From contig CALWSK010000005.1 of NCBI GenBank assembly GCA_944384195.1, positions 62,001 to 126,000 on the forward strand: a stretch of 64,000 bases of DNA. Direction: 5' to 3'. Source of the DNA: an uncultured Clostridia bacterium. GTDB taxonomy: Bacteria; Bacillota; Clostridia; Lachnospirales; CAG-274. Every line of letters starts with the position of its first letter. The first letter of the stretch is position 1. Below are positions 16,914 through 41,312 of the stretch, piece after piece. The translations under genes were made by a program, and so were the position numbers. The notes under the pieces are model-generated. The model did no database searches. It worked only from the letters and a program-made list of their open reading frames with translations, and had not been told where the DNA came from.

Positions 16914-17270
16914 ATGAAGTTAAGAAAAGATTATACCTGCCCCTTAGAGCTTGTCCACGATATGCTAAGAGGCAAGTGGAAATGTATAATAATATGGCGT
17001 CTTAGGCTTGGTGCTACTATGCCCTCATCTCTTTTAAGAGATATAGCTGGCATAACAGAGAAAATGCTACATCAACATCTAAACGAACTTATATCTTATG
17101 GTTTTGTAGATAAAAAGACTACAGATACCTACCCTCTAAAAACAGAATATTTTCTCACACAAAGTGGAGAACAAATACTAAAAGCACTAGAAATATATCA
17201 AAAAGTAGGCATAGAATATATGATAAATAATGGACAAGAACAAGTCTTAAAAGAAAAAGGGCTAATATAA
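16914..17270 (+). CDS. HxlR-family transcriptional regulator
   Basis: A 118-residue winged-helix protein with the HxlR pattern: a Cys near the start (YTCPLELVHDMLRGKWK) and the recognition region ITEKMLHQHLNELISYGFVDKK. Members often sense redox or electrophile stress through that Cys or regulate a neighbouring gene. There is no clear Shine-Dalgarno site. The ATG lies one base after the phosphofructokinase stop (TAATATG), so it is probably translated by coupling and co-transcribed. A strong terminator follows. Its target is unknown. Confidence 0.85.
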   Translation: MKLRKDYTCPLELVHDMLRGKWKCIIIWRLRLGATMPSSLLRDIAGITEKMLHQHLNELISYGFVDKKTTDTYPLKTEYFLTQSGEQILKALEIYQKVGIEYMINNGQEQVLKEKGLI

Positions 17271-30977: not shown

Positions 30978-32369
30978 ATGAAAATACGTTTTGATTATAA
31001 TAATATGATGGAAGAATTTGTAGGAAAAACTGGTATATCTAAAGCAGATATAGATGCTCTTGATTTATCTTCTGCTAAAAAAAATATGGTAGATAAAAGA
31101 GCTAATGGCAAAATGGACTGGAGAGATTTACCATATAATCAAGAAGAAGTTTGTGATGATATTATCTCTTATGTAAACGAAGTTAAAGATAAATTTGATG
31201 CTTTTGTAGTTCTTGGTATAGGTGGTTCTGCTCTTGGCCCTATCTGTGTACAACAAGCTATAAATCATCCATACTACAACGAGTTACCTAGAGAAAAAAG
31301 AGGTGGTTTCCCTAAATTTTATGTAGCAGATAATGTTGACCCTGAAAAATTAGTATATCTTTTTGAAACAATAGATATTACTAAAACTTTATTTAATGTT
31401 ATATCAAAATCTGGTTCTACTTCTGAAACTATGAGCCAATTTATGATAATTAAAAAAATGCTTGAAGAAAAATTAGGAGATAAAGCAAGCGAAAATATCG
31501 TTTGTACAACAGATAAAGAAAACGGAAATCTTATAAAAATTGCTAAAGAAGAAAATTATAAAACATTTATTATACCTTCTGGTGTAGGCGGAAGATTTAG
31601 CGAGCTTACTCCTGTTGGACTTTTACCTGCTGCTTTTTGTGGAATAGATATTAAAGAACTTTTAAAAGGCGCGGCAGTTATGGACGAGATATGTAAAAAT
31701 GATGATATCTACAAAAACCCTGCTTATATGTATGCTATCTTAAATTATCTTAGCATCAAAAAAGGACAAAATATGTGCGTTATGATGCCTTATGCAGATT
31801 CTTTAAAATTTATATCTGATTGGTATGCACAACTTTGGGCAGAAAGTCTTGGTAAAAAATTTGACAATGAAGGTAATGCAGTACACGTAGGTTCTACTCC
31901 TGTTAAGGCTTTAGGTGTTACAGACCAACATTCTCAAGTACAACTTTATACAGAAGGACCTTTTGATAAAATTATAACTTTTATTGGTGTAGATAAATAT
32001 AAAAAATCTATCACTATACCTGAAATCTATCAAGATATCCCAAGTCTTGGTTTCCTTGCTGGTGTTACTCAAGATGACCTTATCAAAACAGAACAAATAG
32101 CTACAGAATTTGCTCTTTTAAAATCTGGTAAACCTAATATGACTATTACTTTACCAGAAGTAAATGAAAACACTTTAGGACAACTTTTATACTTATTTGA
32201 AGTTGCTACTGCATTTATGGGAGAACTTTTAAATATTAATGCATTTGACCAACCTGGCGTTGAAGAAGGTAAAAATGCAACTTATGCATACTTTGGTAGA
32301 CCTGGATATGAAGAAAAGAAAAAAGAACTTGATTCTATGCCTACTAAAAAAGCAGATTATCAAATGTAA
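30978..32369 (+). CDS. pgi: Glucose-6-phosphate isomerase
   Basis: A 463-residue glycolytic enzyme interconverting glucose 6-phosphate and fructose 6-phosphate. Landmarks are LGIGGSALGP, the phosphate loop SKSGSTSETMSQF, GGRFSELTPVGLLPA, the catalytic Glu region WAESLGKK and the QHSQVQLYTEGP stretch. The length fits the bacterial/archaeal short type found in Firmicutes. The AAAAGGAGAAC ribosome site supports the start. It is a single-gene unit with its own promoter and a terminator (32374-32398). Confidence 0.97.
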   Translation: MKIRFDYNNMMEEFVGKTGISKADIDALDLSSAKKNMVDKRANGKMDWRDLPYNQEEVCDDIISYVNEVKDKFDAFVVLGIGGSALGPICVQQAINHPYYNELPREKRGGFPKFYVADNVDPEKLVYLFETIDITKTLFNVISKSGSTSETMSQFMIIKKMLEEKLGDKASENIVCTTDKENGNLIKIAKEENYKTFIIPSGVGGRFSELTPVGLLPAAFCGIDIKELLKGAAVMDEICKNDDIYKNPAYMYAILNYLSIKKGQNMCVMMPYADSLKFISDWYAQLWAESLGKKFDNEGNAVHVGSTPVKALGVTDQHSQVQLYTEGPFDKIITFIGVDKYKKSITIPEIYQDIPSLGFLAGVTQDDLIKTEQIATEFALLKSGKPNMTITLPEVNENTLGQLLYLFEVATAFMGELLNINAFDQPGVEEGKNATYAYFGRPGYEEKKKELDSMPTKKADYQM

Positions 32370-32370
32370 T

Positions 32371-32399
32371 TTTAAGGTGGACTTTGTCCACCTTTTTTA
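32371..32399 (+). repeat. 29-bp direct repeat, copy 1, also the pgi terminator
   Basis: AAGGTGGAC / TTT / GTCCACCTT followed by T6 is an intrinsic terminator for pgi. The same 29 bases recur at 37035-37063, just after the type III restriction gene. Confidence 0.85.
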
Positions 32400-32473
32400 A
32401 ATTTAATATTGAAATATTTAATACTATTTATTATAATTAATGTAAAATTTTATGATATGGAGAATTTTTAATT

Positions 32474-34396
32474 ATGAATAATATTTATGAAAAAATCGAA
32501 AACTTATTTAAACAAAATTCAGAATATTTAACAGAAGATAATACACTTCTAAAAACTAAAATATATGAAGACTGTCAAAATTTAGAACCTAAATTTATAA
32601 AAATATTACTTACAGATGATTATATTAAAAAATATTTTTTTATTAAAATAAATGATGTTTTAGTCTTTAATAAAGAAAAATTTGTTTCTATTATAAATTA
32701 TAAAAACTTTTTACCAGATAGTTACACTAAATATTGTAATAAAATAGGCTTAACACATAATAATAAATTTATTTCTAAAAGTAATGATGTAGTACTTGAT
32801 TTTCCTTATAAAGATTGTGTTTTAGCAGGTGGTCAAACAAAAGAAGACCAAAAAAGAGAAGATTGTAAAGAAGTAGTATTTAATGAATTAATAGCAAGTG
32901 ATGAAATAACAAGAATGTTAGCTCCTAAAGTATTTACTAATGCTAAAAGATATACAAAAGATGCTATAGAAGAAGATATAACATTTAATGAAGATGATAA
33001 TTTAATAATTAAAGGTAATAATTTAATTGCTCTTTCATCAATATTGGAAAAATATGAAGGAAAGGTTAAATGTATTTATATAGACCCACCATATTATTTT
33101 AAGATAAATAAACCATCAAATACATTTAGTTACAATTCAAATTTTAAACTTAGTTCTTGGCTTTTATTTATTAAAAATCGTTTAGAATACGCCAGAAAAT
33201 TATTATCAAATGATGGTATTATTTTTTGTCATATTAATGAAGAAGGAATTCACTATTTAAAATTATTAATTGAAGAAATTTTTGGAAAAGAAAATTTTAT
33301 TGAAACATTTATTTGGAAAAATACAGATAATCCAGATTCTATATCTAAAAAGTCTAGATCATCTGTTGAGTATATTATTTGTTATGAAAAAGTTAAAGAT
33401 TTAAATAAAAAATATATTGGTAAAATTTCTGAAAATTGCGATACACCATTATTAAATACAGGTAATAATATTAAAGAATTAAGATTCCCGAAAGGAACAA
33501 TAAAATTTAATATTGATGATGGATTTTATGATTCAGAAATAAAAGAAAAAGTCGAGTTATTAACACCTTTTTATGTTAAGGATGGATTAAATGATAGAGA
33601 TATAATACTAAAGGGTGAATTTAGATGGAGTCAAGAAAATTTAGATAAAGAAATAAAACTTGGAACATATTTTATAGTAAAATCTGAAAAATTTTCTATA
33701 CGTTTTCAAAAACCATCAGGTAATATAATGGCACCTGAAAAATACTTAGAGGAAAAATATCTATCAAAAGTTTTAGGAGTTGGAACAAATGAAGATGCAA
33801 ACTCCCATTTAAAAAGTATGAAAATAGATTTTTCTTATTCTAAGCCAGAAACAATAGTTTCATTTTTTATAAATGCAGTAACTAATAAAAATGATTTAGT
33901 ATTAGATTTTTTTGTTGGAAGTGGAACAACTTGTGCTGTTGCTCATAAAATGGGAAGAAGGTATATAGGTATAGAACAAATGGACTATATTAATGATATT
34001 ACTGTTGCTAGGCTAGAAAAAGTAATACAAGGTGAACAAGGGGGCATATCTAAATCTGCAAATTGGCAAGGTGGTGGCTCTTTTGTATATTGTGAGTTAA
34101 AAGAAAATGCTTATTCGCTTATTGAACTTGTGAAAAGTACAACAGAAGAAAACATAGATAAAATAAAAGAAAAAATTTTTAATGATGATAGAATAGTACC
34201 ATATATAAGAAAAGAAGATTTAGAAAAAGCAAGCAAAGAATTTGAAGAAAATTCTTTAGATGAAAAGAAGAAAGCTCTTATTACTTTAATAGATAAAAAT
34301 AAATTATATGTAAACTTTAGTGATATAAATGATGAAGATTATAAAATTACTGAAAGCGAAAGAAAATTTACTAATTCTTTTTATAAAGGGGTGTAA
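32474..34396 (+). CDS. mod: Type III restriction-modification system, DNA methyltransferase (Mod)
   Basis: A 640-residue adenine-N6 DNA methyltransferase of the beta class. The catalytic motif DPPY is at 204-207 (YIDPPYYF), and the SAM-binding motif follows it (DFFVGSGTT, 479-486, then GRRYIGIEQM). The region between them (about 290-440) should be the target-recognition domain that sets the methylated sequence. Mod alone methylates one strand of the recognition site, and with Res it forms the restriction complex. The stop lies three bases before res. The TRD cannot be matched to a known specificity by eye. No simple-sequence repeat suggesting phase variation was seen. Confidence 0.93.
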   Translation: MNNIYEKIENLFKQNSEYLTEDNTLLKTKIYEDCQNLEPKFIKILLTDDYIKKYFFIKINDVLVFNKEKFVSIINYKNFLPDSYTKYCNKIGLTHNNKFISKSNDVVLDFPYKDCVLAGGQTKEDQKREDCKEVVFNELIASDEITRMLAPKVFTNAKRYTKDAIEEDITFNEDDNLIIKGNNLIALSSILEKYEGKVKCIYIDPPYYFKINKPSNTFSYNSNFKLSSWLLFIKNRLEYARKLLSNDGIIFCHINEEGIHYLKLLIEEIFGKENFIETFIWKNTDNPDSISKKSRSSVEYIICYEKVKDLNKKYIGKISENCDTPLLNTGNNIKELRFPKGTIKFNIDDGFYDSEIKEKVELLTPFYVKDGLNDRDIILKGEFRWSQENLDKEIKLGTYFIVKSEKFSIRFQKPSGNIMAPEKYLEEKYLSKVLGVGTNEDANSHLKSMKIDFSYSKPETIVSFFINAVTNKNDLVLDFFVGSGTTCAVAHKMGRRYIGIEQMDYINDITVARLEKVIQGEQGGISKSANWQGGGSFVYCELKENAYSLIELVKSTTEENIDKIKEKIFNDDRIVPYIRKEDLEKASKEFEENSLDEKKKALITLIDKNKLYVNFSDINDEDYKITESERKFTNSFYKGV

Positions 34397-34399
34397 TAT

Positions 34400-37039
34400 A
34401 TGAATGAAAAATATTTGTATGAAGATTTAGAGTCCCTTGAAAAAGCAGGAATGTTGAAAGAAATACCAGAAATTATAGAAAATGGACTATCAAATAAAAT
34501 AGAACTTAGAGAATATCAAAAACTAGCTTTTAGATATTTTATTACATATTTTGAAAATGAAAATTTAAAGAAAAATAAGCAAGTGCATACATTATTTCAT
34601 ATGGCTACTGGTAGTGGTAAAACAGTTATAATGGCAGGACTTATATTATATTTATATACAAAAGGATATAATAAATTTTTATTTTTTGTTAATACAAAAA
34701 CTATAATTGAAAAAACAAAGGAAAATTTTATAAATTCTACATCAAACAAATATTTATTTAATAATAACATAAACTATTTAGGCAATAATATAAAAATTAA
34801 AATAGTATATAATTTTACAACAGATTGTTTATCAAATGATATAGAAATATGCTTTACTTCAACTCAAAAGCTACATAATGATTTATTTGAACCCAAAGAG
34901 AATAGCTTAAATTATAGAGATTTTGAAGATAATAAAATAGTATTTATATCAGATGAAAGTCATCATATAAATACACTTACTAAAAAGAATTTATCTAAAA
35001 AAGAATTTGAAAACAAAGAGAAAGATTTAAAACATTGGGAATATTCTGTTACAAGGGCTTTACATAGTAATAAAGATAGTATAATGTTAGAATTTACAGC
35101 TACTGCAAATTTAAAAGATAAAAATGTAGCGCAAAAATATAAAGATAAAATTATTTTTGATTATCCTTTAAGAAAGTTTAGGGAAAGTGGATATACAAAA
35201 GATTTTAAAAATTTTGCAACTATAAGTGAACTATGGGATAGAACCTTAATGGCATTAATAATAAGTGAATATAGAAAATTTCTTTTTTCAGATTTAAAAC
35301 TTGATATAAAACCTGTTATAATGCTAAAATCTAAAAAAGTAAAAGAATCTCAAGCTTTTTATGATATGTTTTTTGATAAAATAGAAAACTTATCTATTGA
35401 TGAAATTAATAAGTTTTACAATATAAATACACAAGAAGATAATAAAAAAGATAATATTTTAGATACAAAAAAATTTATTACTAAAGTATTAAATTATTTT
35501 AAAAATAAAGATGAAAGTTTAAATTTATTATTAAATAGTATAAAAAACTCGTTTACAAAAGAAACAAGTATCATTATTAATAATGATATTAAAGATAAAA
35601 AAGATATTCAAGTATTAATAAATTCTCTTGAAGATAAAAATAATATAATTAGAGTTATTTTTGCTGTTGATATGCTTAATGAAGGTTGGGATGTATTAAA
35701 TCTTTTTGATATAGTTAGGTTATATGATACGGGTTCTAAAGATTATACAACAAAAGAAGCTCAATTAATAGGGCGTGGTGCAAGATATTGTCCTTTTAAA
35801 TTAAATGATGAACAAGATAAATTTAAAAGAAAATTTGATTTTGATTTAGATAATGATTATAGAATATTAGAAACTATGTTATTTCATAGCCAAGATGATT
35901 CTAAATACATAAAAGAATTAAGACAAGCTCTTATAGAAAGTGGTTTAGAAGAAGAAACTAGAATAGAATTAAACTATATATTAAAAGAAGAGTTTAAAGA
36001 AACTAATTTTTATAAAACAACTTATGTATATTCTAATGAAAGAAAAATTAAATCTAGAGAAGATGTTGTAAGTATTGAAGAAAATTTTAAAAATAAAACA
36101 TTTTCTTATACAGTAAAAGAAAATCAAGGACATATTTATAGTATTATTGATGAAAATGAAAATGTTAGTTATAAAGAAGAAACTATACCATTAAAATTCA
36201 AAGATATAGATTACAATATTTTACTTGGTGCTTCTGAAAAATATAGTGCTCTTAAATTTGATGTTATAAAAAACAAATACCCTAATGTTAAAACTATGAG
36301 AGAATTTTTAACATCAGATGCTTATTTAGGTAATATCAGATTAAAAATAAATTATTTGCATAAATTAACTGGAAAAGATATTTTTGATGCTTGCGTTGAT
36401 GCTTTTGATAAAATATCTAATTATATAATATCTATAAAAGAAGAATTTGAAGGAACAAAAGAATTTAAACCTAGTCAATTAAAAAATGTTATAAAAGATA
36501 AAAAAATATATATTTCTTCTAAAGAGGGTACTGCAGGAAAAGGAAATTCTCAAAATACTTGTATAGATAGAGAATATGCTTTAGATTTATCAAAAGAAGA
36601 TTGGTATGTTTTTAATGATAATTATGGAACAAGCGAAGAAAAAGCATTTATTAAATATTTTAAAACAGATATAGCTCCTAAATTAGAAGAAAAAAACTTA
36701 GAATTTTATGTTATACGAAATGAACGAATAAGCCAATTAGCTATATATAATTTTGCTAATGGAGAAAGATTTGAACCAGACTATTTATTGTTTATTAAAA
36801 AGAAAAATACTGATAACTTTACAATTAATCAAATATATGCAGAGCCTAAAGGAAGCCATTTATTACTTAATGATAGTTGGAAAGAAGAGTTTTTATTAAG
36901 CATAAATGATGAAAGTAAAATAGATAATGTTTTTAATGGTGGTAATAATTATAAAGTTATAGGACTACCATTTTTCAATAAAACTGAAAGAATAAAAGAA
37001 TTTGATAAAGCTATTAACAATTTAATTGATAATATTTAA
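34400..37039 (+). CDS. res: Type III restriction-modification system, endonuclease (Res)
   Basis: An 879-residue ATP-dependent restriction subunit. The superfamily 2 helicase-like motor has ATGSGKT (69-75), DESHH (185-189), FTATAN (motif III) and a late motif LIGRGARYCPF. The C-terminal nuclease domain has the PD-x-E-x-K pattern P793-D794 ... E815-x-K817 (ERFEPDYLLFI, AEPKG). All catalytic residues appear intact, so the system should cut DNA carrying unmethylated sites. A GGGGTG ribosome site lies before the ATG, and the pair forms one transcript ending in copy 2 of the 29-bp repeat terminator, of which its stop codon is part. Confidence 0.93.
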   Translation: MNEKYLYEDLESLEKAGMLKEIPEIIENGLSNKIELREYQKLAFRYFITYFENENLKKNKQVHTLFHMATGSGKTVIMAGLILYLYTKGYNKFLFFVNTKTIIEKTKENFINSTSNKYLFNNNINYLGNNIKIKIVYNFTTDCLSNDIEICFTSTQKLHNDLFEPKENSLNYRDFEDNKIVFISDESHHINTLTKKNLSKKEFENKEKDLKHWEYSVTRALHSNKDSIMLEFTATANLKDKNVAQKYKDKIIFDYPLRKFRESGYTKDFKNFATISELWDRTLMALIISEYRKFLFSDLKLDIKPVIMLKSKKVKESQAFYDMFFDKIENLSIDEINKFYNINTQEDNKKDNILDTKKFITKVLNYFKNKDESLNLLLNSIKNSFTKETSIIINNDIKDKKDIQVLINSLEDKNNIIRVIFAVDMLNEGWDVLNLFDIVRLYDTGSKDYTTKEAQLIGRGARYCPFKLNDEQDKFKRKFDFDLDNDYRILETMLFHSQDDSKYIKELRQALIESGLEEETRIELNYILKEEFKETNFYKTTYVYSNERKIKSREDVVSIEENFKNKTFSYTVKENQGHIYSIIDENENVSYKEETIPLKFKDIDYNILLGASEKYSALKFDVIKNKYPNVKTMREFLTSDAYLGNIRLKINYLHKLTGKDIFDACVDAFDKISNYIISIKEEFEGTKEFKPSQLKNVIKDKKIYISSKEGTAGKGNSQNTCIDREYALDLSKEDWYVFNDNYGTSEEKAFIKYFKTDIAPKLEEKNLEFYVIRNERISQLAIYNFANGERFEPDYLLFIKKKNTDNFTINQIYAEPKGSHLLLNDSWKEEFLLSINDESKIDNVFNGGNNYKVIGLPFFNKTERIKEFDKAINNLIDNI

Positions 37040-37063
37040 GGTGGACTTTGTCCACCTTTTTTA
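37035..37063 (+). repeat. 29-bp direct repeat, copy 2, also the res terminator
   Basis: Identical to 32371-32399. It includes the res stop codon (37037-37039) and the same AAGGTGGAC / TTT / GTCCACCTT hairpin with T6. The two copies are in the same orientation, 4664 bases apart, and bracket the type III genes. Confidence 0.85.
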
Positions 37064-37150
37064 TATATCCATACTTACAAATAAGTTAGTAATTTACATT
37101 TATAAAATATATAGTATAATAAAAATATAAAATCTAAGGAGGTTATATTT

Positions 37151-37648
37151 ATGAAAATAACTAGTAGCGGTATTGTAAATGGAATAATTGATAAAAAATA
37201 TGGTCAAGATGGAGAAACAAATGATTTTGGTATGCCAGTTTGTTCTCTTCCTTTAAAATTTGAAGATGCTCCAGAAGGAACTGTTAGCTATGCTATCTTT
37301 TTAGAAGATAAAGATGCATATCCTATTAGCGGTGGATTCTCTTGGGTACATTGGCTTGCTTGTGATATAACAAAAAATGAAGTTTTAGAAAATGAAAGCC
37401 AAAATGCCGAATTTAAACAAGGTGCTAATAGCTGGATAAGTATCCAAGGCGGTAAACAACCTATAGAGCTTTGCTCTGTTTATGGGGGTATGGCTCCACC
37501 AGATAAAACTCATACTTATGAGATAAATGTATATGCTCTTGATTGTATGTTAAATTTAGAAAATGGCTTCTTATTAAATGATATGTTTAATAAAATGGAA
37601 GGCCATATCTTAGCACATTCTGTTTTAAAAGGTAAATATATAAAATAA
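37151..37648 (+). CDS. PEBP-family protein (YbhB/YbcL type)
   Basis: A 165-residue phosphatidylethanolamine-binding-protein fold. The family signature is the ligand-site region SYAIFLEDKDAY with FSWVHWLACDI, and later APPDKTHTYEINVYAL. Bacterial members are cytosolic and of unknown physiological role. No signal peptide is seen. An AAGGAGG site precedes the ATG. It is a single gene with its own terminator. Confidence 0.9.
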   Translation: MKITSSGIVNGIIDKKYGQDGETNDFGMPVCSLPLKFEDAPEGTVSYAIFLEDKDAYPISGGFSWVHWLACDITKNEVLENESQNAEFKQGANSWISIQGGKQPIELCSVYGGMAPPDKTHTYEINVYALDCMLNLENGFLLNDMFNKMEGHILAHSVLKGKYIK

Positions 37649-38157: not shown

Positions 38158-38691
38158 TTATATATATTTTCTAATTTTAGTAATCTCAAAACTATTACTA
38201 TTAATATATATTATATTTTTATTTTCTTTTAAAGCATAGTTTAAAGTAAAATATGTTCCACTATTTTTATCAATACCATTATATATACCTAATAATGTAG
38301 TACATTTATCTACTAAAAATTTATTTCTTTTTAAATAACAATCTTTTGTAAACTCTTTTTGTAAAGTTATTTTAGCTGTACAATTACTAATTAAATTATT
38401 GTACCTAAACTTATAACTATCATTCCATCTTTCTATTTGATTTTCAAAAGGTATTATACAATATAATTTTATATCATCATATTTTTCCTTTAAATTTAAA
38501 ATAATTTCTCCCAACCAAGTATCTACACCTATTGCACAACCTGTTAAAAAAATTTTATTACCATCTAAATATAATTTTATAATTTCTTCTATAAGTAAAT
38601 ACTTTAATCTAATACAATCTATATGATTTTCATTATTTTTAAAATGAAATTTATTAGGCCTATGTCCAGTAAACGAACAAATCTTTTCCAT
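38158..38691 (-). CDS. SLOG-family (DUF1273/YpsA-like) protein
   Basis: A 177-residue protein starting SFTGHRPNKF, the hallmark of DUF1273, a SLOG (Rossmann-like nucleotide-binding) family. FLTGCAIGVDTWLGEIIL is the glycine-rich loop, and LLGIYNGIDKNSGTYFTLNYA matches the later conserved segment. SLOG proteins are thought to bind or make nucleotide signals, and some occur in defence systems. The B. subtilis relative YpsA affects cell division. The frame is open to 38709, but the ATG at 38691 has an AAGGAGAATTTT site and is chosen. It is divergent from an XRE regulator and close to restriction genes. Confidence 0.8.
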   Translation of the reverse strand: MEKICSFTGHRPNKFHFKNNENHIDCIRLKYLLIEEIIKLYLDGNKIFLTGCAIGVDTWLGEIILNLKEKYDDIKLYCIIPFENQIERWNDSYKFRYNNLISNCTAKITLQKEFTKDCYLKRNKFLVDKCTTLLGIYNGIDKNSGTYFTLNYALKENKNIIYINSNSFEITKIRKYI

Positions 38692-38799
38692 AAAATTCTC
38701 CTTATACATAATTATAAATTAGTATTAAATACAATTATTATTATATTAATTTTAGTTTAATTATAATGCATAATATTAGTAATGTAAAGGGGTGTTTTT

Positions 38800-39111
38800 A
38801 TGAATATAGGTTCAAAATTAAATTTTATAAGAGAAACTAAAAAAATTAGTGTCTATAAATTATCAAAATTAACTGATATTTCAGAAAATCATATTCATAA
38901 TATTGAAAAAGGCATTACTCAACCTTCTGTTTTGATTTTAGAAAAACTTTTATCTGCTCTTGGTACAAATCTTTCAGAATTTTTTAATGAAAATAATGAT
39001 ATTGTCTCTTTAAATAAATTTGAAACAGAGCTTATTCAAAGTATTAGATTGCTTGATGATGAAAAATCAGATGCTATCTTAAAAATAATTAAATTGATGA
39101 ATAATAAATAA
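38800..39111 (+). CDS. XRE-family transcriptional regulator
   Basis: A 103-residue protein with a Cro/C1 helix-turn-helix (6-60): FIRETKKISVYKLSKLTDI and NHIHNIEKGITQPSVLILEKLLSALG. A short C-terminal helix pair follows (LIQSIRLLDDEKSDAILKII). Similar small XRE proteins control stress, toxin or defence genes. The AAAGGGGTG site and a TATAAT at 38762-38767 lie upstream. It is divergent from the SLOG gene and followed by the convergent DUF262 gene; either could be its target. Confidence 0.87.
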   Translation: MNIGSKLNFIRETKKISVYKLSKLTDISENHIHNIEKGITQPSVLILEKLLSALGTNLSEFFNENNDIVSLNKFETELIQSIRLLDDEKSDAILKIIKLMNNK

Positions 39112-39124
39112 ATTATTTTAATAT

Positions 39125-39158
39125 AAAAAAGTGTGAAATACAATATTCACACTTTTTT
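39125..39158. terminator. Bidirectional intrinsic terminator
   Basis: Stem AAAAAAGTGTGAA / TTCACACTTTTTT with an 8-base loop, between the convergent XRE and DUF262 genes. Confidence 0.85.
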
Positions 39159-39161
39159 ATA

Positions 39162-41216
39162 TTATTTCAACCTAAACGTTATATCATCTTCAAACCCATA
39201 TTTTTCTGCTATAAGCTTAGATATACTAAGAAGATAATTAGCATTAAAATTAGTTTCTATATATAATCCTTCATCTATTTGAAAAGGAGATATCATTTTT
39301 AAACCATTATTATCTATTATTTTCCTTGTATTAGGACAAAAATCTTTATCCGAAATAAAACTTCTAAAAATACTCTTATCAAGTTTATAAAAATATTTAC
39401 AAATAATCTTTAAAAAATCTTTCCAAGAATCTATATTATACGTAACATTATATATAGTTATATTTTTAGGTTTTGTACTTGTAAAGTTTATATCATCGCT
39501 TAAATAGTACTCTATATTTACATCTGCTTTTTCATAATCTTTATTATATTGATCATCTAAAAACCATATCTTCTCCGCTATTTTATAAAAATCTTTAGCT
39601 CTAGCTTCTATACTTTCTCTATCCCAATTATCAAATCTACATATATCCCTTGTTATACTAAAATTAGAGTCTTTATATTCAAAAACTTTATTATCAAAGC
39701 TATTGTTAGAAAGTTTAGCATTATATCCAGTAAGTGTAAGATTTCCTATAGTATTTATATATTCTTTATATATTTTTTCATAATCTTTTCCAAGAGCTAT
39801 TTCCCAGCTAGAATTTAATTTTTGAGGCATAATATGTTCTATTTGTATTTCTTCTGTATCTTCTAAAAATTCTTTATTATTTTTAAATTTTTCTATTTCA
39901 AAAAGTATATATCTGCAAAACTCTCTAGATTTATACAAATTATACTTAACAAATTTTTCTTTAAATTCTTTATTTTTAGGAAATGAGGAATTATTTATAT
40001 CTCTTATTAAAATATGTATAAGCTTTTGCTTATAATCTGTTCCTTTTTCTTTTTCATTTTGAATTTTAACTGGTATACTACAAAATATAGATTTTAATTG
40101 ATTACTCTTATACTCACATATCTTTCTTCTTACAAGATATGTTATAATAGTTTTTAAAATCTCTTCTAATTCATTAATAGATATATTTTTATATTCAAAA
40201 GTTTCTTCAAAAAAATATAAAAGAGTAGGATATACAACTGTTGATTTTAATGTTTCTATATTATTAAGCAAGTAATTTATATTTTCATAAGGACAATCTA
40301 TATTTATAAACCAACTATAATATTTAGAATATAATAAAAGCTCTTCTAAAAAATATTCTTCATCAAGATTTTCTTCTTTTAAAATCTTTTTAGTTTTAAA
40401 TTCTCTAAACTTCTCATAAAGTTCATTTTCCTTTACACTTTTTCCTGTTTTCATAGATAAATAAGTAGATATAAAATTAGATATTTCAATATTCCCTATT
40501 TTCTTTTCTATCTTATACCAATAATTTAAATATAATCTAGTTTGTTTTTCATATTCGTGGTTCATAAGAAGATAATTTCTTATTAAATCTCCTTGTGTTA
40601 GAGATAGTCCTGTAGAATTAAGGCTTTCAAATATAAGCTGTGGATTTTCTGTTTTTTCTAACATAATATAAACAAGCTCAAGATTATTAAGAGCTTTAAA
40701 AATATCTTCACAAGAAAATTTACTTTCACTAATTAACTTTTTAAAAAGAATATAGTTTTGATAAATACAAGATGCCTTATCCACTTCTTCAAAATCATTA
40801 TTTAAAATTTTCTTCCAATTATCAAAATCATCTTTACAAAGAATAAGCCTTGTATTTTCTCCTTCTTTATATTTATGCACTAAGTAACTATCATATATTT
40901 GCTCTTTTTTTATCTTCTTATCTTCTGCTAAAGTATCCATTATAGCTTTTAATATAAGAGTTAATGTTGTTATTCTTTGTTGTCCATCTACTATAACACA
41001 GTCTTCAAATTCATAATTTTTAACTCCTTCTACATATACAACAGTCCCTATAAAATGTGTTATATTAAAATTATTTATTACTATATTTTCTATATCTTCA
41101 AATAGTTTTATACATTGTCTTTCTTGCCAATTATAATTTCTTTGATAAACCGGAATTTTAAAAGTTTTACCTGTTGCATCAAGAAACCTTAGAGCCTGTA
41201 TTTTATCAGCTTTCAT
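39162..41216 (-). CDS. DUF262-DUF1524 protein, GmrSD-like
   Basis: A protein of about 684 residues. The N-terminal DUF262 (ParB/Srx-like nucleotide-binding) domain shows IPVYQRNYNW and VDGQQRITTLTLIL. Residues around 450-520 form a DUF1524 HNH-type nuclease domain with the His-containing QIEHIMPQKLNSSW and NTIGNLTLTGYNAKLSN. This pairing is that of GmrSD/BrxU-like type IV restriction enzymes that attack modified phage DNA, though related proteins of unknown role exist. The C-terminal 120 residues form an additional unassigned domain. The frame opens with a TTG at 41228, but the ATG at 41216 has a TTGGAGGAAATT site. It is a single gene divergent from the two-component system. Confidence 0.82.
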   Translation of the reverse strand: MKADKIQALRFLDATGKTFKIPVYQRNYNWQERQCIKLFEDIENIVINNFNITHFIGTVVYVEGVKNYEFEDCVIVDGQQRITTLTLILKAIMDTLAEDKKIKKEQIYDSYLVHKYKEGENTRLILCKDDFDNWKKILNNDFEEVDKASCIYQNYILFKKLISESKFSCEDIFKALNNLELVYIMLEKTENPQLIFESLNSTGLSLTQGDLIRNYLLMNHEYEKQTRLYLNYWYKIEKKIGNIEISNFISTYLSMKTGKSVKENELYEKFREFKTKKILKEENLDEEYFLEELLLYSKYYSWFINIDCPYENINYLLNNIETLKSTVVYPTLLYFFEETFEYKNISINELEEILKTIITYLVRRKICEYKSNQLKSIFCSIPVKIQNEKEKGTDYKQKLIHILIRDINNSSFPKNKEFKEKFVKYNLYKSREFCRYILFEIEKFKNNKEFLEDTEEIQIEHIMPQKLNSSWEIALGKDYEKIYKEYINTIGNLTLTGYNAKLSNNSFDNKVFEYKDSNFSITRDICRFDNWDRESIEARAKDFYKIAEKIWFLDDQYNKDYEKADVNIEYYLSDDINFTSTKPKNITIYNVTYNIDSWKDFLKIICKYFYKLDKSIFRSFISDKDFCPNTRKIIDNNGLKMISPFQIDEGLYIETNFNANYLLSISKLIAEKYGFEDDITFRLK

Positions 41217-41312
41217 AATTTCCTCCAAAATATAACAATTTATGTAAATTTTATCATATAAAATACAAATTGTAAATAAAGTTATAAATTTAAAGTTATT
41301 TTAAAATTTTTA

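What the first reader, a model, noticed from the sequence alone, without database searches (positions are those of the whole stretch)
32371..37063. Type III R-M genes bracketed by a 29-bp direct repeat that is also a terminator
The terminator of pgi (32371-32399) and the terminator of res (37035-37063) are identical over 29 bases and in the same orientation. The second copy even includes the res stop codon. Between them lies exactly the mod-res pair. Other terminators in the window have different stems. This looks like a cassette boundary: the two genes may have entered by recombination within a terminator, or could be lost by recombination between the copies, leaving pgi with one intact terminator. 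It is a neat way to insert genes without harming the host gene. A widespread terminator repeat in this genome is the alternative.
Basis: partly seen in the sequence, partly recalled or inferred. Interest (0 to 1): 0.6.

Follow-up and report, generated by a model that had tools for sequence, protein, structure and literature searches.

The report
Restriction genes bracketed by duplicated terminator
A pair of phage-defence (type III restriction-modification) genes sits between two identical 29-base copies of a transcription stop signal found nowhere else in this bacterium's genome, which looks like the scar of the genes' insertion next to a housekeeping gene; it is a clear example of a known kind of event, not a new system.

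Summary
TTTAAGGTGGACTTTGTCCACCTTTTTTA lies at 32371-32399 and 37035-37063, same strand, exact. Both copies are good intrinsic terminators, and exactly mod-res lies between them. The sequence is not a common terminator: its 21-base core occurs twice in the 1.66 Mb genome, and core plus T run in none of 391 other genomes of the order. Among 42,486 terminator pairs in this genome only one other shares as long an identical stretch. The bracketed interval matches the unit that moves: a congener carries the same genes (res 92% identical) elsewhere, beside Gabija genes, with another 3' end; homology spans 32398-37038. The other six congeners lack res.

Cassette insertion is therefore well supported. 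How the repeat arose is not shown: no empty site (pgi-terminator-PEBP) exists in the held genomes, because PEBP sits elsewhere in six congeners and was not found in the seventh; a second rearrangement joint lies 7 bp beyond copy 2. Best explanation: insertion with duplication of the pgi terminator, akin to 'insertion with long target duplication' of restriction genes in Helicobacter. Excision between the copies is possible but untested. Two weaker cases of matching neighbouring terminators occur in this genome; the excess was not seen in 0.8 Mb of a congener.

The parts
30978..32369 (+). pgi (phosphoglucose isomerase), core gene upstream of the cassette
   Evidence: Pfam PGI E 4.6e-38; present in all 8 genomes of the genus
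32371..32399 (+). repeat copy 1 = pgi terminator (hairpin 32374-32394 plus T run)
   Evidence: read directly; terminator scan; fold -13.1 kcal/mol, z -4.0
32409..32437 (+). promoter-like site of mod (TTGAAA-17-TATAAT), inside the bracketed unit
   Evidence: consensus match 11 of 12; a similar TTGAAA region lies upstream of mod in G003, though the AT-rich alignment is only moderately above shuffles
32474..34396 (+). mod, type III DNA methyltransferase, 640 aa
   Evidence: Pfam; PADLOC MTase_III E 2.8e-160
33217..33880 (+). middle of mod (presumed target-recognition region), diverged from the congener's allele while the flanks are 79-92% identical at the DNA level
   Evidence: gap between the two BLAST segments
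34400..37039 (+). res, type III restriction subunit, 879 aa; its stop codon lies in repeat copy 2
   Evidence: Pfam ResIII; PADLOC REase_III E 1.7e-109
37035..37063 (+). repeat copy 2 = res terminator (hairpin 37038-37058 plus T run)
   Evidence: read directly; terminator scan; fold -16 kcal/mol, z -5.8
37071..37150 (+). conserved PEBP promoter region; its left edge is a rearrangement joint 7 bp after copy 2
   Evidence: aligns with the region directly after the 118-aa gene in congeners
37151..37648 (+). PEBP-family gene, relocated relative to six congeners
   Evidence: Pfam PBP E 6.1e-28; position in congeners

Best explanation
mod-res is a horizontally acquired defence module, probably with its own promoter, inserted immediately downstream of pgi; the event left a second copy of pgi's own terminator at the far end of the insert. 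Shown: two identical 29-bp terminators, unique in the genome, bracketing an interval that coincides with the homologous unit of a congener. Inferred: the copy went from pgi to res during insertion (target duplication, or copying primed by a short match such as TTTAA at the res stop). In effect pgi keeps a terminator, res gains one, and PEBP stays insulated. Recombination between the copies could remove the module and leave pgi with one intact terminator; this is untested.
For: Uniqueness of the sequence and rank among terminator pairs. Homology with the G003 module covers 32398-37038, i.e. the inter-repeat interval, while the G003 module ends differently after the res stop and lies in another place. 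res is found in only 2 of 8 congeners. mod and res have 23% and 21% GC against 31% for pgi and 32% for PEBP. pgi terminators of G001, G004 and G006 are hairpins of the related GTAGAY...RTCTAC style, which favours the terminator being native to pgi.
Against: No empty site seen; PEBP is itself relocated, so at least two events happened here and their order is unknown. pgi terminators turn over completely between species. The left edge of homology is AT-rich and only moderately above shuffles. Low GC is also usual for defence genes without recent transfer (own knowledge).
Confidence: 0.55

Rival explanations
1. mod-res was inserted with another 3' end, and the pgi terminator was later copied onto the end of res by local gene conversion or template switching, independent of the insertion.
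For: Near terminator pairs in this genome share long stretches far more than distant ones (6 seen against 0.02 expected at 20 bp or more; three of the six are not trivial), including two pairs of hairpins with flipped loops, which suggests local copying of hairpins.
Against: The excess is not seen in 0.8 Mb of G001. It needs a separate event, and copy 2 begins exactly at the res stop, as an insertion joint would.
Confidence: 0.2
2. A circular or linear donor already carrying mod-res plus this terminator integrated by homologous recombination within the pgi terminator.
For: Gives the same map. 29 bp exceeds the 23-27 bp minimum quoted for RecA/RecBC recombination (PMC12074656).
Against: The terminator is unknown elsewhere in 391 genomes of the order, a 25-base stretch of it has no match in the viral contigs, and the only close relative of the module lacks it.
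Confidence: 0.15
3. The two copies belong to a dispersed terminator repeat family of the genus and are alike only for that reason.
For: Congeners have a dispersed hairpin TTGTAGACAAAGTCTACAA (23 exact copies in G001), in G001 often part of a ~200-bp repeat. The pgi terminator of G001 is a member, and the window hairpin shares the inner GACTTTGTC.
Against: In the window's genome the family is nearly absent (4 forward and 2 reverse matches at up to 2 mismatches). The GGTGGAC...GTCCACC form occurs only at these two sites, and identity extends through the flanking TTTAA and T run.
Confidence: 0.07

Closest known systems
Insertion of restriction-modification genes with long target duplication (Helicobacter pylori; Nobusato et al. 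2000, as summarised in PMC1643837, PMC3874152, PMC4978471)
   Same: Restriction-modification genes flanked by a direct repeat that looks like a duplicated target; no transposase inside the unit.
   Different: Repeat is 29 bp rather than on the order of 100 bp, and is a transcription terminator; no empty-site strain is available here; a type III rather than the more mobile type II system.
Minimal mobile element (Neisseria; defined in PMC3898611 after Saunders and Snyder 2002)
   Same: A whole-gene cassette between two core-type genes, without mobility genes of its own.
   Different: There, entry is by homologous recombination in the flanking core genes and different strains hold different cassettes; strains could not be compared here.
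Reversible excision of wzy between 113-bp perfect direct repeats in Salmonella (PMC12074656)
   Same: A phage-related locus lies between two perfect direct repeats in intergenic positions.
   Different: Excision was demonstrated there; here it is only possible, and the repeat is much shorter.
Repetitive extragenic palindromes as targets for insertion sequences (PMC1525189)
   Same: An extragenic palindrome as a place where DNA is inserted.
   Different: No insertion sequence is present, and the 29-mer is not a repeated element in this genome.

Membership tests
Type III restriction-modification system | Mod subunit with N6/N4 methylase domain and type III N-terminal domain | tested here: met
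   PF01555 E 9.6e-38, PF12564 E 1.4e-19; PADLOC MTase_III E 2.8e-160
Type III restriction-modification system | Res subunit with helicase and type III restriction profile, adjacent to mod | tested here: met
   PF04851 E 3.5e-30; PADLOC REase_III E 1.7e-109 over residues 11-870
Type III restriction-modification system | Methylation and restriction activity | not testable with these tools
   sequence only
Insertion with long target duplication | Direct repeat at both ends of the unit | tested here: met
   29 of 29 bases, two copies only
[quoted passage not shown]
   gene order around pgi and PEBP differs in all congeners held
Insertion with long target duplication | Duplication on the order of 100 bp | tested here: not met
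   29 bp; size range from PMC3874152
Minimal mobile element | Different gene cassettes at the same site between conserved genes in different strains | tested here: inconclusive
   downstream of pgi every congener differs, but the right-hand gene is not conserved either and no strains of one species are held
Transposon or insertion sequence | Transposase gene within the unit | tested here: not met
   only mod and res lie between the repeats
Dispersed terminator repeat (REP-like) | Many copies of the sequence in the genome | tested here: not met
   two copies

The most novel reading that the evidence does not exclude
In this lineage intrinsic terminators act as general joining points for gene modules: genes are inserted or shuffled with duplication of the neighbouring terminator, so that host gene and newcomer are both insulated. 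Besides mod-res, two accessory-looking units (an acetyltransferase-like gene at G000 C4:17269-17904, and a membrane-protease-like gene with small neighbours at C4:47023-48603) lie between near-identical neighbouring terminators.
Probability: 0.13. Interest if true: 0.6.

Novelty: new member of a known kind. Interest (0 to 1): 0.32.

Why it matters
It is a clean case of how a defence cassette can settle next to a core gene without harming it: the joint is a terminator, and both sides keep one. If same-species strains show the empty site, it would add a type III, terminator-based example to the restriction-modification insertions with target duplication, and make module exchange at terminators testable across genomes. 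As it stands it is a well-defined but ordinary trace of horizontal gene gain.

Tried and rejected
Common-terminator explanation: rejected by copy counts. Empty site in congeners: looked for at pgi and at PEBP, not found because of gene-order turnover. Viral-contig scan for a 25-base stretch: nothing. Flanking repeats at other type III loci: none in nine loci beyond two chance-like 14-mers. DNA-uptake-sequence idea for the GTAGAC hairpin: in the window's own genome the half-site is not enriched outside hairpins. General terminator-duplication idea: an excess in the window's genome but not in 0.8 Mb of G001; at the corresponding sites congeners lack the enclosed genes, which is uninformative because nothing downstream is conserved there. 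Rfam searches of the pgi 3' region of G003 and of one copy of the dispersed G001 repeat: no credible family. [quoted passage not shown]

Full report
Observation. The two 29-base copies are exactly as described. Copy 1 begins two bases after the pgi stop; copy 2 starts inside the last sense codon of res and supplies its TAA stop. Both are 9-bp stems with a 3-base loop and a T run, and both fold far better than shuffles. Only mod and res lie between them; a PEBP-family gene follows on the right.

Is it a common terminator? No. The 21-base core AAGGTGGACTTTGTCCACCTT occurs twice in the 1.66 Mb genome, both here. With up to 2 mismatches in the 17-base hairpin pattern the only further match is GGTGGAGGAAGTCCAGC on contig C13. 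The core is absent from the 47 other genomes of the family, and GGTGGACTTTGTCCACCTTTTTT is absent from 391 other genomes of the order. I read about 1.54 Mb of the genome in stretches and found 292 merged terminator-like hairpins (contig C13 left out). Of 42,486 pairs, only one shares a longer identical stretch (30 bp, inverted orientation, contig C4); the next value is 25. Among exact direct repeats of 22 bp or more, 150 bp to 20 kb apart, this is the one terminator pair that is not part of a gene duplication, by my reading of the list.

Is the bracketed interval the unit that moves? Yes, to the precision available. Of eight genomes in the genus only one other (G003; record CALWLD010000014.1, uncultured Clostridia bacterium) has res, 92% identical in protein. 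BLAST homology covers window 32398-33216 (79%) and 33881-37038 (92%), the gap being the diverged middle of mod. The right edge is sharp: it ends at the res stop, after which G003 reads ATAAATTTATAAAAATTT and the window enters the terminator. The left edge is less certain because the sequence is AT-rich. In G003 the genes lie at a contig end that shares about 75 bp with the start of another contig carrying GajA- and GajB-like genes. Its surroundings are unrelated to pgi, and the 29-mer is not part of the module there.

Empty site. pgi is present in all seven other congeners at 89-90% identity, but with a different 3' sequence and different neighbours from the window in each. PEBP was found in six of them, next to an ortholog of the 118-aa gene that in the window lies at 16914-17270. 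The conserved PEBP promoter region begins at 37071, seven bases after copy 2; in congeners it follows the stop of the 118-aa gene directly. The right neighbour of mod-res is thus itself a relocated module, and a clean pgi-terminator-PEBP empty site cannot be expected outside the species. The order of the two events is unknown.

Mechanism. The most economical account is that mod-res entered just downstream of pgi and that the pgi terminator was duplicated in the event. Three points favour the direction pgi to res: the G003 module has another 3' end; the 29-mer is otherwise unknown in the order; and pgi terminators of three congeners (G001, G004, G006) are hairpins of the related GTAGAY...RTCTAC style. 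TTTAA at the res stop could have served as a microhomology; this is inference. Integration by recombination inside a shared terminator would give the same map but needs a donor that already had this rare terminator. Later loss of the module between the copies is possible in principle, since 29 bp exceeds the 23-27 bp minimum quoted for RecA/RecBC recombination (PMC12074656), but no evidence for it was available.

Comparison with known cases. Restriction-modification units flanked by direct repeats that represent duplicated targets are described in Helicobacter pylori (Nobusato et al. 2000, summarised in PMC1643837, PMC3874152 and PMC4978471), with long, variable duplications on the order of 100 bp; [quoted passage not shown] The minimal mobile element of Neisseria (PMC3898611) is the nearest concept for a cassette between core genes. 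The present case works like the former with a shorter repeat that is also a terminator. Strict membership in the long-duplication class fails on length and is inconclusive on the empty site, so I file it only as a further restriction-modification insertion with a probable target duplication.

A wider pattern? Near terminator pairs (6 kb or less) share 20 bp or more six times where 0.02 is expected from distant pairs. Three of the six are trivial: two lie in one gene-duplication region on C1 and one is a pair of hairpins 29 bp apart on C6. The other three are mod-res, a pair around an acetyltransferase-like gene, and a pair around a membrane-protease-like gene with small neighbours (gene names from my reading of the sequences, not profile-tested). 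The last two match with flipped loops, so orientation is ambiguous. The same analysis in 0.8 Mb of G001 did not show it. I treat this as a lead only.

Limits.

Noticed in passing
G001 (same genus), e.g. L194:3864-4069; hairpin TTGTAGACAAAGTCTACAA: A dispersed structured repeat of about 200 bp in a congener, starting with a terminator-like hairpin: 53 profile matches in 0.8 Mb, counting both strands of the palindromic part and fragments. The hairpin alone recurs genus-wide with species-specific variants, e.g. CTGTAGACAAAGTCTACAG in G004. No Rfam match.
   Followed up: partly
window's genome, 292 terminator-like hairpins: About 10% of terminators share a GTAGAY...RTCTAC core; the inverted GTAGAC pair is about 118 times more frequent than expected from hexamer counts.
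   Followed up: partly
G003: L042 1-200 and L044 1-260: Two different res 3' ends share about 75 identical bases across a contig break, suggesting two res alleles or strains at one place beside Gabija-like genes; mod of G003 is split into two overlapping frames.
   Followed up: partly
L032, L033, L037 (Vagococcus, Haloimpatiens, Clostridium), after res at about 10610: Nearly identical DNA follows a related res gene in three genera, pointing to recent transfer of one element carrying a type III system.
   Followed up: no
window 38158-41228: A YpsA-family gene, a small helix-turn-helix gene and a GmrSD-like (type IV restriction) gene lie close to the cassette, so the region holds a second defence-like gene.
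   Followed up: no
G000 C2:341296-342256: A CRISPR-like array with a 37-bp repeat, GTCTGAAAAGACGTTCCAATATAACAAGGATTGAGAC.
   Followed up: no
L012:8390-8570 (G003, 3' of pgi): The pgi terminator region of G003 looks interrupted by about 150 bp, with AGAGTGAAGA on both sides.
   Followed up: no
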